Shown here: piece by piece, positions 31,780 to 34,802 of the stretch
Numbering within the stretch: position 1 is the stretch's first letter
Layout of the letters: each line of letters begins with the position of its first letter
Assembly (NCBI RefSeq): GCF_002914525.1
Contig: NZ_LODW01000022.1
Location: forward strand, 1-64,000
DNA length: 64,000 nucleotides
Direction: 5' to 3'
From: Rhizobium hidalgonense
GTDB taxonomy: Bacteria > Pseudomonadota > Alphaproteobacteria > Rhizobiales > Rhizobiaceae
Notes under the pieces: generated by a model
Seen by the model: only the letters and a program-made list of their open reading frames with translations
What the model was told of the DNA's origin: nothing
The model's database searches: none
Made by a program: the position numbers and the translations under genes

Positions 31780-31995
31780 CTAATCTCCACCACCTCCGTC
31801 TCCACCACCTCCGTCTCCACCCCCGCCGTCACAGCCGCCACCGTGGCCACCGTCGCAGCCGCCATGGGAGGTGTCGAACCCAACTCCACCGCCGTCGCCA
31901 GAGCTGCCCGACTTGTGCTTGCTGCCCATGATCATCAGGGCACAAAACAGGATGAAGCATGCGAAGAGCACACCATCCGAGAAAAATGTATCCAA
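31780..31995 (-). CDS. Small membrane-anchored Gly/Asp-rich protein
   Basis: A 71-residue protein with one N-terminal membrane helix (about residues 7-24, DGVLFACFILFCALMIMG), a short KHKSGSS segment, and a C-terminus of glycine repeats interrupted by Asp, His and Cys, ending in three GGGGD units. Evidence that it is real: a TTG start with a strong SD (AAAGGAT) at correct spacing, and a dedicated terminator. Function unknown. The Cys/His/Asp-decorated glycine tail could bind metal or serve as a recognition tail. I recognise no named family with confidence. Confidence 0.7.
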   Translation of the reverse strand: MDTFFSDGVLFACFILFCALMIMGSKHKSGSSGDGGGVGFDTSHGGCDGGHGGGCDGGGGDGGGGDGGGGD

Positions 31996-32153: not shown

Positions 32154-33713
32154 TCAGGCAACCGCTCTTTGCGGAAAGAGCACGGCTTGCGGGGCGGCTT
32201 TGACCCCGCTCACGATCAGCTGATCCCGATAGAGGCGAGGAGACGCTATTCCCAGCCTGGAATGCAGCGTTGCGGCCGCGGCCGGCAGGAATGGGAGGAG
32301 GCAGCGAGCAATGATCGCAAGGCCGTAGACCTGCTCGGCCAGGCCAGCACCAAGACGTTCGAAGGTCGCCTGGCGATCCTCCGGAACGGGATCGCCAAGC
32401 AGCGCTTTCGCATCCACCCATGGTGCGCATTTTGTAAACCGCCGGTTCGCCTCGCCGATAAACTCGAAAATGTCGGCGAGGCCGACATGGAGCTCGTAGG
32501 CATCGAACGCCGCCGATACCTTCCCCGGAAGGCGGTGAGCCTGCTGCACGAACTCGGTATCCGGCACCGGCGGTATGATGCCGGCGAACGACTGATCTAG
32601 AAGGGCAAGCACCCGATTGGCGAGATTGCCGAGCTGGCCCGCGAGCTCGCCCGACCATGCGGCTTCCAGACGCTCGGCCGAGAAATCGCCATCGTCTCCC
32701 GAGCGGATATGCCGGAGCAGATAATAGCGCAGCGCGTCCGGCGTTCCGTAGGCGTCGATGATGCCTTCCGGATCGATGCCGTTGCCGGCCGACTTGCCGA
32801 TCTTCCTGCCGTCGACCGTGACGTAACCGTGCACGAGAAGCAATGATGGCGGTGGCAGGCCGGCCGACAGCAGGATGGCCGGCCAGTAGATGGCGTGGAA
32901 TTTGGAGATGCCCTTGCCGACGACGTGGATGCGTTCTGCGCCGTTCCAATAGCGCTGAACCAGCGCTTCGTCGGACCCGTGCCCCAGGCCTGTGAGATAG
33001 TTCGCCAGGGCATCGAACCAGACATAGACGACTTCACCAGCATCGGGGCCATCTCCCTCGGGAACCGGAACGCCCCAGCCTCGCGCCCGTTCGGCGCTGC
33101 GCGACACGCTGATGTCGGTGAGGCCCCGCCGCAGCAAGGAAAGGATTTCATTGCGCCGATGGGCGGGAACGATGCGAAATTCACCAGTCTCGACGAGTTC
33201 GAGCAGCCGGCCGCCATATCGGGAGAGACGGAAGAACCAGTTCTCCTCTCGGACGATCTCGAGAGCGACCCCATGTTCGGGGCAGCGCCCGTCATCGAAT
33301 TCCGACGGTTCGTAGAATTGCTCGCAGCCGACGCAGTAGAGGCCCTCATAGGCTCGGCGATAGAGGTCGCCGTTTTCAGCGCAAGCCCGCCACAAGGCGT
33401 GGACGCAGGCGACATGCCTTGGATCGCGAGAGGTGCGGACGAATTCCTGGTTGGAGAGATCGAGCCGGCCGCCCAGAGCCTCGAACCTGTCGGCATTGGC
33501 ATTGACGAAGGCCCTCACCTGCAGTCCCGCGGCTTCCGCCGCCCTGACATTCTTCAGGCTGTTGTCGTCGGTTCCACACTGAAACCTGACGTCGTGACCG
33601 AGAAGCCTGAAATGGCGGGCATAGGCATCGGCCTGGACGAGTTCGAGGGCGAAGCCCACATGCGGCGCGGCATTGACATAGGGGATCGAGGTGGTGACGT
33701 AGATCTTGTTCAT
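32154..33713 (-). CDS. metG: Second, divergent methionine--tRNA ligase
   Basis: Charges tRNA-Met with methionine. The 519-residue class I synthetase has the HIGH motif as APHVGFALEL, KMSKS as GRKIGKSAGNG, and the WFDALANYLTG block for the methionine pocket. A zinc knuckle is present (YCVGC...RCPEH). The protein differs from the rhizobial housekeeping MetRS as I recall it (which begins with a YYVTTAISYPNG-type sequence and lacks these cysteines), so this is probably an extra, acquired copy. An AGGAA SD precedes the ATG. Its leader contains a Met-rich peptide and terminator, described separately, suggesting induction when methionyl-tRNA is low. It may be a resistance or reserve enzyme. Confidence 0.92.
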   Translation of the reverse strand: MNKIYVTTSIPYVNAAPHVGFALELVQADAYARHFRLLGHDVRFQCGTDDNSLKNVRAAEAAGLQVRAFVNANADRFEALGGRLDLSNQEFVRTSRDPRHVACVHALWRACAENGDLYRRAYEGLYCVGCEQFYEPSEFDDGRCPEHGVALEIVREENWFFRLSRYGGRLLELVETGEFRIVPAHRRNEILSLLRRGLTDISVSRSAERARGWGVPVPEGDGPDAGEVVYVWFDALANYLTGLGHGSDEALVQRYWNGAERIHVVGKGISKFHAIYWPAILLSAGLPPPSLLLVHGYVTVDGRKIGKSAGNGIDPEGIIDAYGTPDALRYYLLRHIRSGDDGDFSAERLEAAWSGELAGQLGNLANRVLALLDQSFAGIIPPVPDTEFVQQAHRLPGKVSAAFDAYELHVGLADIFEFIGEANRRFTKCAPWVDAKALLGDPVPEDRQATFERLGAGLAEQVYGLAIIARCLLPFLPAAAATLHSRLGIASPRLYRDQLIVSGVKAAPQAVLFPQRAVA

Positions 33714-33763
33714 CGGCGTTTCCTTTCGAAGGCTATTGTTGCCCGCGAGACGGATCGACCCAT

Positions 33764-33788
33764 AAAAAAGACCGCCTCGAAGGCGGTC
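33764..33788 (-). terminator. Attenuator terminator before metG2
   Basis: On the minus strand, a perfect 8-bp stem GACCGCCT / AGGCGGTC with a 3-nt TCG loop ends in T6. It lies 33 nt after the stop codon of the Met-rich leader peptide and 50 nt before the metG2 ATG. Its place between promoter and gene makes it an attenuator rather than a gene-end terminator. Confidence 0.88.
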
Positions 33789-33815
33789 GCTGGTGCATCT
33801 GGACGCACGAAACCC

Positions 33816-33834
33816 GCCACGCTATGAGCGCGGC
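33816..33834 (-). promoter_or_regulatory. Leader 1:2 hairpin competing with antiterminator
   Basis: Leader RNA positions 39-57 (A of the leader ATG = 1) form GCCGCGCU / AGCGUGGC, 8 bp including one G-U, loop CAU. The left arm begins at the last base of the third Met codon. The right arm contains GGC of GGCGG (55-59), which can alternatively pair with CCGCC (87-91) in the left arm of the terminator. This gives the three mutually exclusive pairings of a classical attenuator. Confidence 0.7.
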
Positions 33835-33872
33835 ATCATCATCACGAAAGTGCTGATCAGGGTGTTGTCCAT
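33822..33872 (-). CDS. Met-rich leader peptide of metG2 attenuator
   Basis: A 16-codon ORF encoding MDNTLISTFVMMMPRS, with three consecutive Met codons at positions 11-13, followed by TAG. It ends 108 bp upstream of the metG2 start on the same strand and just ahead of an alternative-hairpin region and a strong terminator. No SD is present, but a promoter-like pair puts the transcript start at the A of this ATG, so it may be read as a leaderless message, as reported for the trp leader of Sinorhizobium. Translation stalling at the Met codons would sense charged tRNA-Met. Confidence 0.78.
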   Translation of the reverse strand: MDNTLISTFVMMMPRS

Positions 33873-33878
33873 ATCATT

Positions 33879-33907
33879 TTTCTAGCATGAAGGGCACTTT
33901 CGAACAA
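33879..33907 (-). promoter_or_regulatory. Candidate sigma-70 promoter of the metG2 leader
   Basis: On the minus strand: -35 TTGTTC (33902-33907), 17-nt spacer, -10 TAGAAA (33879-33884). The seventh base after the -10 is the A of the leader-peptide ATG (33872). Each box matches the consensus only partly, so this rests mainly on spacing and position. Confidence 0.5.
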
Positions 33908-33914
33908 GCGCGCT

Positions 33915-34802
33915 TCAATGATCGGCGGCATCCGATCGGCATTCCTTCGTAAACCACTCCGTAAAACGACGCACCGGCTTTTTCGCCCAGGAACTGGTGA
34001 TCAGGTAATATCCCTGGGTCTCCGCCGTCGAGATATCCGAAAGCACGACGAGGTCGCCACGATCGATCTCTCGCCGAAACACTTCGACCGGGCATAATGC
34101 GACCCCATGTCCGGCTATCACCGCCGTGGCAAGCATATTGAAGTCCTGAAATATCGGCCCGCGAACCGGCTCCGGCGCCTTTACGTCAGTTTTTCGGAAC
34201 CATTCTTTCCAGCCGTCCACGGATTCGTCGTGCAGCAGGTCGGCGGCTGCAAAGGACACGCTGTCGACAGTCCAGTTCCGTTTGGAAAGATAATGAACGC
34301 TGGCCACCGGCTGGTTGCGGCGGGAGAAAAGCAGCCGGCTCTCCCGTCCGCCCGACAGGTCTTCTCCCATGGTAATCAGAACATCCAGGCTTTCGTGATC
34401 GAATCGCTCTTCCGCTTTTGCATAGACGATCCTGACATCGAGATCGGGATTGCTCTCGCGGAAAGACGGCAGTGCGGGAACAAGCCAGCGCGACGCGATC
34501 GAAGGAATGCATCCGACAGTGATCGAACGCATATTGTGGTCTCGGCGCATATTGCCCGTTGCATGGGCGATGGCTGCCAGCGAGCCCGAGACGGCCAGAT
34601 AATATTCGCTGCCCGCCGGGGTCAGCGCGACCCCGCGCCCGGATTTTTGCAGCAGCTTGCGTCCCAGCCACGCCTCCAGATGTTTGAGCTGATGACTGAT
34701 CGCCGCGTGGGTCACATGCAGTTCGTCTCCAGCCTTTGACAGGCTCATCAGCCTGGCAGTCGCTTCGAAGGCCCTCAAGGCGTTCAGTGGCGGCAGTTGC
34801 AT
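33915..34802 (-). CDS. LysR family transcriptional regulator (GcvA-like)
   Basis: A 295-residue LysR regulator. The winged helix-turn-helix is at residues 1-60 (LPPLNALRAFEATARLMSLSKAGDELHVTHAAISHQLKHLEAWLGRKL), with the GcvA/AmpR-type opening 'PPLNALRAFEA'. The effector domain covers about 90-290. It is transcribed away from ectC, with an AT-rich 180-bp gap that is the natural place for its operator, so ectC is the likely target. The effector is unknown. Confidence 0.92.
   Translation of the reverse strand: MQLPPLNALRAFEATARLMSLSKAGDELHVTHAAISHQLKHLEAWLGRKLLQKSGRGVALTPAGSEYYLAVSGSLAAIAHATGNMRRDHNMRSITVGCIPSIASRWLVPALPSFRESNPDLDVRIVYAKAEERFDHESLDVLITMGEDLSGGRESRLLFSRRNQPVASVHYLSKRNWTVDSVSFAAADLLHDESVDGWKEWFRKTDVKAPEPVRGPIFQDFNMLATAVIAGHGVALCPVEVFRREIDRGDLVVLSDISTAETQGYYLITSSWAKKPVRRFTEWFTKECRSDAADH

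What the first reader, a model, noticed from the sequence alone, without database searches (positions are those of the whole stretch)
33713..33907. Methionine-responsive attenuator before a second methionyl-tRNA synthetase
Directly seen on the minus strand: (1) a 16-codon leader ORF (33822-33872) with three adjacent Met codons; (2) overlapping arms: 39-46 with 50-57 (8 bp), 55-59 with 87-91 (5 G-C pairs), and 85-92 with 96-103 (perfect 8 bp plus T6), numbering from the leader ATG; (3) a further hairpin at 65-80; (4) metG2 starts 50 nt after the terminator. Established knowledge: this is the architecture of ribosome-mediated attenuators such as trp and leu. Inference: a ribosome stalled at the Met codons covers arm 39-46, frees 50-59, and the antiterminator forms; with enough Met-tRNA the terminator forms. 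Met-codon attenuation of a methionyl-tRNA synthetase gene is something I do not recall being described.
Basis: partly seen in the sequence, partly recalled or inferred. Interest (0 to 1): 0.9.

Follow-up and report, generated by a model that had tools for sequence, protein, structure and literature searches.

The report
Methionine attenuator before backup methionyl-tRNA synthetase
In a Rhizobium genome, the DNA before a second gene for methionyl-tRNA synthetase holds a tiny reading frame with three adjacent methionine codons and overlapping hairpin arms; together they likely form a switch that would turn the gene on when charged methionine tRNA runs short, and many related synthetase genes in other bacteria are also preceded by short frames with adjacent methionine codons.

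Summary
A 16-codon leader ORF (MDNTLISTFVMMMPRS*), overlapping hairpin arms and a U6 terminator lie 50 nt before metG2, the second of two MetRS genes. The unit occurs in all 64 close rhizobial loci examined (39 distinct leaders); the Met codons stand in 37-38 of 39 while most codons upstream vary. Leader and gene sit in many different flanks. Folding gives the expected switch: antiterminator pairing in nascent RNA has median probability 0.02 free, 0.99 with a ribosome at the Met codons, 0 with it at the stop (there its footprint covers the arm). Distant relatives carry other leaders on the same plan: 6 of 7 in the rhizobial order, with Met-Met leaders in 52 of 60 actinobacterial loci (terminators less clear), one Armatimonadota and one Gemmatimonadota locus. 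Companion MetRS genes have none (0 of 9). The attenuated enzymes placed in the tree lie in one clade reading G(T/A/S)D(D/E)N(S/A) where MetRS normally has GTDEHG. Best reading: a ribosome-mediated, Met-tRNA-sensing attenuator on an auxiliary MetRS, possibly an inhibitor-tolerant backup. No description of it was seen in the searches made. No expression data were available.

The parts
33903..33908 (-). promoter-like -35 element CTTGTT (inferred)
   Evidence: TTG invariant in 32 of 32 aligned upstream regions; DNA homology with 10 of 31 loci begins within 6 nt upstream of it; E. coli-type consensus scan found none
33881..33886 (-). promoter-like -10 element GCTAGA, 8 nt before the leader ATG, so transcription likely starts at or within a few nt of the ATG (inferred)
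   Evidence: TGNTA invariant in 32 of 32 aligned upstream regions
33822..33872 (-). leader ORF MDNTLISTFVMMMPRS* (16 codons plus stop)
   Evidence: core found in 63 of 64 rhizobial loci by pattern, the 64th (L112) by eye with a 1-nt insertion
33834..33842 (-). three adjacent Met codons (regulatory codons)
   Evidence: ATG in 37, 37 and 38 of 39 distinct leaders at these three codons
33816..33834 (-). hairpin 1:2 (arm 1 33827-33834, arm 2 33816-33823), with the leader stop codon across its loop and arm 2
   Evidence: -14.1 kcal/mol; 99.5% of cells paired in 26 leaders
33782..33818 (-). antiterminator 2:3 (33814-33818 with 33782-33786) enclosing the central hairpin
   Evidence: -16.5 kcal/mol; nascent P(2:3) 0.01 free, 1.0 stalled on Met, 0.0 at stop
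33793..33808 (-). central hairpin GTGC..GCAC inside the antiterminator
33764..33788 (-). intrinsic terminator 3:4 (33770-33788) plus T6 (33764-33769)
33715..33760 (-). post-terminator hairpin that pairs the metG2 Shine-Dalgarno with an ATCC that is invariant in the alignment (possible second, translational layer)
   Evidence: folds; pair counts on 21 of 32 sequences (82.5% of cells paired, covariation score and number of doubly changed cells reached by 0 of 500 shuffles, but 3 pairs changed on both sides reached by 276 of 500)
32154..33713 (-). metG2, second methionyl-tRNA synthetase (519 aa)
   Evidence: PF09334 280.7 bits; TIGR00398 346.9 bits against cut-off 336.35; the other MetRS is 40% identical
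33549..33575 (-). codons for the subfamily signature GTDDNSLKN (canonical MetRS: GTDEHGxK)

Best explanation
The 195 bases before metG2 hold a 16-codon ORF with three adjacent Met codons, mutually exclusive hairpin arms and a terminator, which together likely act as a ribosome-mediated transcription attenuator that would let this second methionyl-tRNA synthetase be transcribed only when charged elongator Met-tRNA is scarce. Inferred steps: RNA polymerase starts at or near the leader ATG and a ribosome follows. If Met-tRNA is plentiful the ribosome runs to the stop codon, covers arm 2 and leaves 3:4 to terminate; with no ribosome, 1:2 forms and 3:4 also terminates. If Met-tRNA is scarce the ribosome stalls on the Met run, covers arm 1, frees arm 2 to take arm 3 into the antiterminator, and metG2 is made. 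Shown: the sequence parts, their conservation, their place before one MetRS subfamily and the folding behaviour in silico. Not shown: any RNA or expression. The likely purpose (inference) is an auxiliary MetRS called up when the housekeeping enzyme fails or is inhibited, as published for an antibiotic-resistant TrpRS (title seen).
For: Conservation: 64 of 64 close rhizobial loci (63 by pattern, L112 by eye); the 63 hold 39 distinct leaders, with a Met run of 3 in 33, 4 in 1, 2 in 3, and interrupted in 2. Met codons are 37-38 of 39 conserved while most codons before them vary. Three-state folding in 39 leaders, with the genome's own trp leader as a partial positive control. Leader and gene are shared while the flanks form 19 upstream and 11 downstream clusters among 32 loci. 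Leader model R1: above 100 bits in 2 of 297 family genomes, both with a close metG2. Other leaders with a Met run and complementary arms: L094/L095, L097, L129/L130 and L131; actinobacteria 27 of 30 and 25 of 30 with Met-Met (the best-scoring 30 loci of each search); Armatimonadota L048 with MMM and a terminator. Controls: companion MetRS genes 0 of 9; other MetRS loci 0 of 39 and random rhizobial windows MMM 2 of 3000. Tree of 62 MetRS: the attenuated enzymes placed in it fall in one clade of 48, support 100/99.
Against: Base-pair covariation inside the rhizobial leader is not above shuffles, because most pairs never vary. Equilibrium folding of the complete leader keeps the terminator even when stalled, and the cruder prefix folds show 2:3 in only 3 of 18 representatives (L129, L130, L131), not in the window. 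No E. coli-type promoter. Two of 39 leaders have an interrupted Met run, and L027 and L029 have weak U-runs. 8 of 60 actinobacterial loci lack Met-Met; L036, L037, L042 (in the clade) and G750 show no Met leader. Most actinobacterial hairpins lack a T-run (2 of 30 pass the terminator rule), and no clear antiterminator was shown for L043 or L048. Met shortage also lowers initiation, so severe shortage could silence the leader. No expression evidence.
Confidence: 0.88

Rival explanations
1. The leader is mainly a source of a small RNA or leader peptide that acts in trans, as S. meliloti rnTrpL/peTrpL do, and the effect on metG2 is secondary.
For: S. meliloti trpL is leaderless and its RNA and peptide act in trans (passages of PMC7298713 and PMC10117765); the C-terminal residues (P/L)R(S/L/T) are conserved.
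Against: The conserved C-terminal codons lie in arm 1 and are explained by pairing; most of the rest of the peptide varies. Distant relatives keep a Met run and neighbouring arms, not the peptide. In the family search the strong leader hits were both before metG2.
Confidence: 0.06
2. MetRS autoregulation by anticodon mimicry: MetG2 binds the 1:2 hairpin, whose loop reads CAU, and stabilises the terminator state (thrS-like).
For: The loop CUCAUAG of hairpin 1:2 resembles a tRNA-Met anticodon loop (recalled) in the window and many leaders.
Against: CAU is not kept: the loop is CCU in L023, L024, L026, L030, L041 and UAU in L025, L032; most changes are synonymous TCA to TCC in the Ser codon.
Confidence: 0.03
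3. Control is mainly translational: the hairpin after the terminator hides the metG2 Shine-Dalgarno, and the leader only tunes RNA level.
For: Invariant ATCC pairs with GGAT of the SD; paired cells, doubly changed cells and covariation score exceed all 500 shuffles.
Against: It does not explain the Met run, the leader or the terminator. Two of the 14 pairs are unpaired in 11 of 21 sequences, and L032 folds otherwise. It may be a second layer.
Confidence: 0.05
4. Chance ORF over an ordinary upstream terminator.
For: Short ORFs with MM occur in 111 of 3000 random rhizobial windows.
Against: MMM plus terminator 0 of 3000 against 53 of 60; conservation in 39 distinct leaders.
Confidence: 0.01

Closest known systems
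Auxiliary antibiotic-resistant TrpRS gene under ribosome-mediated transcriptional attenuation (Vecchione and Sello 2010, J. Bacteriol.; title only, seen in the reference list of PMC4787780; that the organism is Streptomyces coelicolor is recalled)
   Same: Second aminoacyl-tRNA synthetase gene under ribosome-mediated attenuation, by its title.
   Different: Tryptophan, not methionine; antibiotic resistance is in that title, only inferred here.
trpL/rnTrpL attenuator of Sinorhizobium meliloti (passages of PMC7298713, PMC10117765) and the trp leader MIKSLNIAVWWWAR* of this genome (L190)
   Same: Short leader ORF at or near the transcript start, run of three regulatory codons in the genome's own trp leader, GC-rich terminator.
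   Different: Biosynthetic gene and Trp codons; here Met codons, which also start every protein.
Predicted attenuators before trpS2 and leuS in Streptomyces (PMC1262725, passages) and leader peptides before trpS, leuS, alaS, thrS and metNIQ in S. lividans (PMC8079986, passages)
   Same: Leader peptides on synthetase genes; metL is a published Met-containing leader, on a methionine import system.
   Different: None of those named in the passages is on a MetRS. metL has scattered Met codons and no typical terminator, by that paper. PMC1262725 reports no conserved structure for methionine operons in Actinobacteria.
E. coli pheM-pheST attenuator and Firmicutes T-boxes on synthetase genes (recalled)
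   Same: Synthetase expression tied to the charging of its own tRNA.
   Different: Phe codons; T-boxes read the tRNA directly and need no ribosome.
Two distinct MetRS genes with variable sensitivity to MetRS inhibitors in Streptococcus pneumoniae (Gentry 2003; title only, seen in the reference list of PMC4787780)
   Same: Two MetRS genes in one cell, linked to inhibitor sensitivity.
   Different: Whether that enzyme shares the signature was not tested; the one here is attenuated and its sensitivity untested.

Membership tests
Ribosome-mediated transcription attenuators (trp/his/leu type) | short translated leader with a run of regulatory codons | tested here: met
   run of at least two Met in 37 of 39 distinct leaders, interrupted in 2; translation itself not tested
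Ribosome-mediated transcription attenuators (trp/his/leu type) | mutually exclusive antiterminator and intrinsic terminator | tested here: met
   (prediction)
Ribosome-mediated transcription attenuators (trp/his/leu type) | ribosome position at regulatory codons against stop decides the fold | tested here: met
   P(2:3) above 0.5 in 39 of 39 stalled, 0 of 39 at stop, 2 of 39 free, with assumed footprints 11 nt (Met) and 8 nt (stop) beyond the A-site codon (in silico)
Ribosome-mediated transcription attenuators (trp/his/leu type) | regulatory codons match the downstream gene's amino acid | tested here: met
   Met codons before a MetRS
Ribosome-mediated transcription attenuators (trp/his/leu type) | compensatory base changes in the arms | tested here: inconclusive
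   none above shuffles within rhizobia; between lineages arms differ in sequence yet complementary arms are readable, not scored statistically
Ribosome-mediated transcription attenuators (trp/his/leu type) | expression responds to shortage of the charged tRNA | not testable with these tools
   needs RNA or reporter work
Rfam Trp_leader RF00513 | score at or above gathering threshold | tested here: not met
   15.3 bits against 41
T-box or SAM riboswitch | Rfam match | tested here: not met
   no Rfam family in the window at gathering; no T-box or SAM family among the 6 matches with E up to 10 in 33700-33950
thrS-like anticodon-mimic autoregulation | conserved cognate anticodon in an operator loop | tested here: not met
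   CAU replaced by CCU or UAU in 7 of 32 aligned leaders
Methionyl-tRNA synthetase, class I (metG) | family models and class I motifs | tested here: met
   PF09334 280.7 bits, TIGR00398 346.9 against 336.35; HVGF and KIGKS in the places of HIGH and KMSKS; catalysis not tested

The most novel reading that the evidence does not exclude
A cross-phylum class of methionine attenuators is tied to one subfamily of auxiliary methionyl-tRNA synthetases whose active site departs from the canonical GTDEHG motif. The pair would work as an inducible defence against natural MetRS inhibitors: blocked housekeeping MetRS stalls ribosomes on the leader Met codons, which releases a tolerant enzyme. Because the sensed amino acid also starts every leader, the response would be bell-shaped, open at moderate shortage and shut at extreme shortage, a behaviour not expected of attenuators for other amino acids.
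Probability: 0.38. Interest if true: 0.88.

Novelty: new variant of a known kind. Interest (0 to 1): 0.74.

Why it matters
Ribosome-mediated attenuators are known for several amino acids; here methionine would be sensed on a MetRS gene. Leaders with adjacent Met codons precede the same synthetase clade in Pseudomonadota and Actinomycetota and in single loci of Armatimonadota and Gemmatimonadota; the hairpin switch itself is shown by folding only in the rhizobial order. If confirmed it adds methionine, the initiating amino acid, to the attenuation code and poses a clean question of how a switch works when its signal also limits initiation. It also points to an auxiliary MetRS that cells would keep silent until charging fails, which suggests that natural MetRS inhibitors, or recurrent Met-tRNA crises, shape soil bacteria.

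Tried and rejected
Covariation as proof of structure: tried on 26 of 32 leaders (L007, L009, L011, L013, L034, L035, close to others, left out of A1); uninformative, most pairs do not vary. The post-terminator alignment A2 used 21 of 32.

Riboswitch or T-box: rejected. Anticodon mimic: considered because the 1:2 loop reads CAU; rejected because CAU is not conserved.

Leader before other genes: R1 gave matches at E up to 0.01 in 30 of 297 genomes (stricter filters), but only two exceed 100 bits. The next six were read on the matching strand; by eye five look like ordinary terminators or unrelated hairpins and one (L087) is a different leader-like element, listed in passing. My working view before one search was that L087 is chance; one search corrects that. 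The weaker hits were not read.

Plasmid location: no match in PLSDB (near mode). A genome-wide null on the whole assembly was not possible; random windows of already fetched DNA served instead.

Literature for a MetRS attenuator: searches returned no paper; one search listed 3 of 3 and one search listed 20 of 146, none on the subject by title or abstract. The held library lacks most subscription journals.

Inhibitor pocket: a passage of PMC9071491 names Asp51, a His, a Gly, Glu55, Lys56 and Ile57 of S. aureus MetRS among the residues of the auxiliary inhibitor pocket. MetG2 keeps the Asp and differs at the His, Gly and following hydrophobic positions of the motif (aligned to two other MetRS; the S. 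aureus numbering was matched by motif, not by alignment). I recall that positions in this stretch are known resistance sites; the papers were not held, so this stays recall.

Signature as a perfect marker of attenuation: rejected. L044 carries it, lies just outside the clade and has no Met leader; L036, L037 and L042 lie inside the clade without one.
Full report
What is there. On the minus strand the leader ATG is at 33872 and the stop at 33824-33822; three Met codons (33842-33834) run directly into arm 1 of hairpin 1:2. Arm 2 overlaps the antiterminator arm, whose partner is the 5' arm of the terminator; T6 ends at 33764 and metG2 starts at 33713. The positions given in the finding are right. 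metG2 encodes a 519-aa class I MetRS. The genome has one other metG, 40% identical, at G000:C93. The host genus is that of Rhizobium johnstonii 3841: G692, a same-genus genome, has its metG2 at the same coordinates as that named record, held as G306.

Conservation in rhizobia. The search for related loci gave 79 loci, 31 of them rhizobial with 66-88% identity. The genus search found metG2-like genes in 36 of 148 genomes. Of 64 loci with close metG2 (window included; some genomes occur twice), 63 carry the leader core by pattern and the 64th, L112, carries it with a one-base insertion seen by eye. The 63 hold 39 distinct leader sequences. At the three regulatory codons ATG stands in 37, 37 and 38 of 39; most codons upstream of the run vary, and the number of codons differs, though GAC stands in 25 of the 26 leaders that have a codon 15 places before the stop. 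The -35-like TTG and the -10-like TGNTA are invariant in 32 of 32, and in the window the -10 ends 8 nt before the leader ATG, so the transcript is likely near-leaderless, as published for S. meliloti trpL (passages of PMC7298713 and PMC10117765). The E. coli consensus scan finds no promoter. DNA homology between the window and the loci begins within 6 nt upstream of the -35-like box in 10 of 31 loci, at or inside the leader in 20, and further upstream only in L006. The flanks fall into 19 upstream and 11 downstream clusters among 32 loci under a blastn rule. So leader and gene form one unit that sits in many places.

Chance. In 60 rhizobial metG2 upstream regions, 57 have a short ORF with MM, 54 with MMM and 53 with MMM plus a T-tailed hairpin; in 3000 random rhizobial windows the counts are 111, 2 and 0. 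Other MetRS loci: 0 of 39 with MM. Companion MetRS genes (seven rhizobial metG1 and the second MetRS of the Gemmatimonadota and Armatimonadota genomes): 0 of 9.

Folding. For 39 distinct leaders, nascent RNA ending at arm 3 pairs 2:3 with median probability 0.02 when free, 0.99 when a ribosome sits at the first or last Met codon, and 0.0 when it sits at the stop. Above 0.5 are 2, 39, 39 and 0 of 39. The ribosome was modelled as covering everything up to 11 nt beyond the Met codon or 8 nt beyond the stop; the stop footprint reaches the antiterminator arm, so the zero follows from arm position and that assumption. Local energies in 32 leaders: 1:2 -10.1 to -14.1, 2:3 -13.8 to -18.2, 3:4 -10.9 to -14.6 kcal/mol. 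Against this, once arm 4 exists the terminator still dominates at equilibrium in the stalled state (median 0.88 and 0.96, window 1.0), so the model needs kinetic trapping. The genome's own trp leader (MIKSLNIAVWWWAR*, L190) behaves alike in the stalled and stop states, with terminator 0.99 or more at equilibrium; unlike metG2, its free nascent RNA already prefers 2:3 (0.92). Covariation within the rhizobial leader is not above shuffles because most pairs never vary.

Same plan, other letters. More distant metG2 (52-54% identity) carry unrelated leaders: MTCLPLNTLSRMMMPLSIREADPFA* and its sister (G175, G234), MPTHPASSSRFTMMPLSQIEVARVVV* (G347, another family of the order), MSNEIDIHKSMMRPC* and its sister (G726, G694), MIEKFKSLMKFRMMRRFAMKR* (G786). 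That is 6 of 7; G750 shows none. In 14 of 18 representative leaders the first paired base of the free fold lies 1-2 nt after the last Met codon; in L095, L097, L048 and L043 it does not, and in L022, L162 and L168 its partner is distant rather than a local arm 2. The crude stalled folds of that call put arm 2 on arm 3 in L129, L130 and L131 only; in the other 15, the window included, they chose other structures, mostly with the terminator. In L094, L095 and L097 complementary arms are readable by eye. Actinobacterial relatives carry Met-Met leaders in 27 of 30 and 25 of 30 loci, the best-scoring 30 of each search. By eye the eight others keep at least one internal Met near the same place. Few actinobacterial hairpins have a T-run (2 of 30 pass my rule), so termination there is less certain; MM occurs in 11 of 3000 random actinobacterial windows. 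L036, L037 and L042 show no such leader. Armatimonadota L048 has MMM and a strong terminator with an upstream long-range pairing; Gemmatimonadota L043 has MCMM and a terminator. For neither did my fold show a clear antiterminator.

The enzyme. In a tree of 62 MetRS (selected rows over 400 aa; L129-L131 not included), the rhizobial MetG2, L094, L095, L097, the actinobacterial ones, L043 and L048 form one clade of 48 (support 100/99); metG1 lies outside. GTD(D/E)N(S/A)xKN stands in 60 of 61 close rhizobial rows (L030 has K for N), 30 of 30 and 30 of 30 actinobacterial rows; L095 and L097 read GADEN, L042 GSDEN; other MetRS mostly read GTDEHG. Of 39 other MetRS only L044 has the signature; it lies just outside the clade and has no Met leader. 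Ten actinobacterial genomes tested each hold a MetRS of 470-501 bits besides this one; five rhizobia, the Gemmatimonadota and the Armatimonadota genome hold two MetRS, as does the window's genome. So the enzyme is auxiliary in the 18 genomes checked. A passage of PMC9071491 places the corresponding stretch of S. aureus MetRS in an auxiliary inhibitor pocket. This, and the published attenuated antibiotic-resistant TrpRS (title seen), make an inducible inhibitor-tolerant backup the most attractive purpose; it is inference.

Second layer. A hairpin between terminator and metG2 pairs an invariant ATCC with the Shine-Dalgarno. Paired cells, doubly changed cells and covariation score exceed all 500 shuffles; the number of pairs changed on both sides (3) does not (276 of 500), and pairing is only 82.5%. 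It may add translational control.

A twist. Methionine is also the initiating residue. Shortage of Met-tRNA lowers initiation on the leader, and a leader without a ribosome folds 1:2 and terminates. The three elongator codons may make stalling more sensitive than initiation. The predicted response is a rise and then a fall with growing shortage (inference).

Literature. Attenuators or leader peptides on synthetase genes are known or predicted (trpS, leuS, alaS, thrS; PMC1262725 and PMC8079986, passages), and a Met-containing leader is predicted before metNIQ in S. lividans. No paper on a MetRS attenuator was seen: searches returned none, one search listed 3 of 3 and one search listed 20 of 146 papers, none on it by title or abstract. 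PMC1262725 reports no conserved structure at methionine operons in Actinobacteria (passage). PMC2965389, a survey of premature terminators, has no match for metG or metS in its main text. I therefore file this as a new variant of a known kind.

Noticed in passing
L087 (G164:C3:148756-148870, minus strand): Leader-like element in another genome of the family: ORF MNNTHKTNLSIMTTVH*, a CCACCGTT/AATGGTGG hairpin over the stop, and a CCGCC..GGCGG T-tailed terminator 30 nt before a 128-aa ORF that looks SnoaL/NTF2-like (name by eye, no search). Similar architecture, other codons.
   Followed up: partly
window 33715-33760: Conserved hairpin between the terminator and metG2 that hides the Shine-Dalgarno; covariation score above shuffles.
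   Followed up: partly
L190 (G000:C42, around 43317): The genome's own trp leader, MIKSLNIAVWWWAR* with terminator, similar in size and layout to the Met leader.
   Followed up: partly
L030 (Pararhizobium polonicum) and L035: metG2 reading frame ends early in L030 (160 aa in the frame read) and lacks the KIGKS match in L035, while both leaders are intact; possibly decaying copies or sequencing errors.
   Followed up: no
window 31784-31830: Tandem repeat of 15 bases, 3.1 copies, between a bioY-like ORF (name by eye) and metG2.
   Followed up: no
L208-L237 (class-level actinobacterial loci): Some auxiliary MetRS leaders have a spaced run such as MMLMSMPSGLFRAS*, and L230, L233, L235 only one internal Met in a similar leader: perhaps a graded series of Met sensors.
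   Followed up: no
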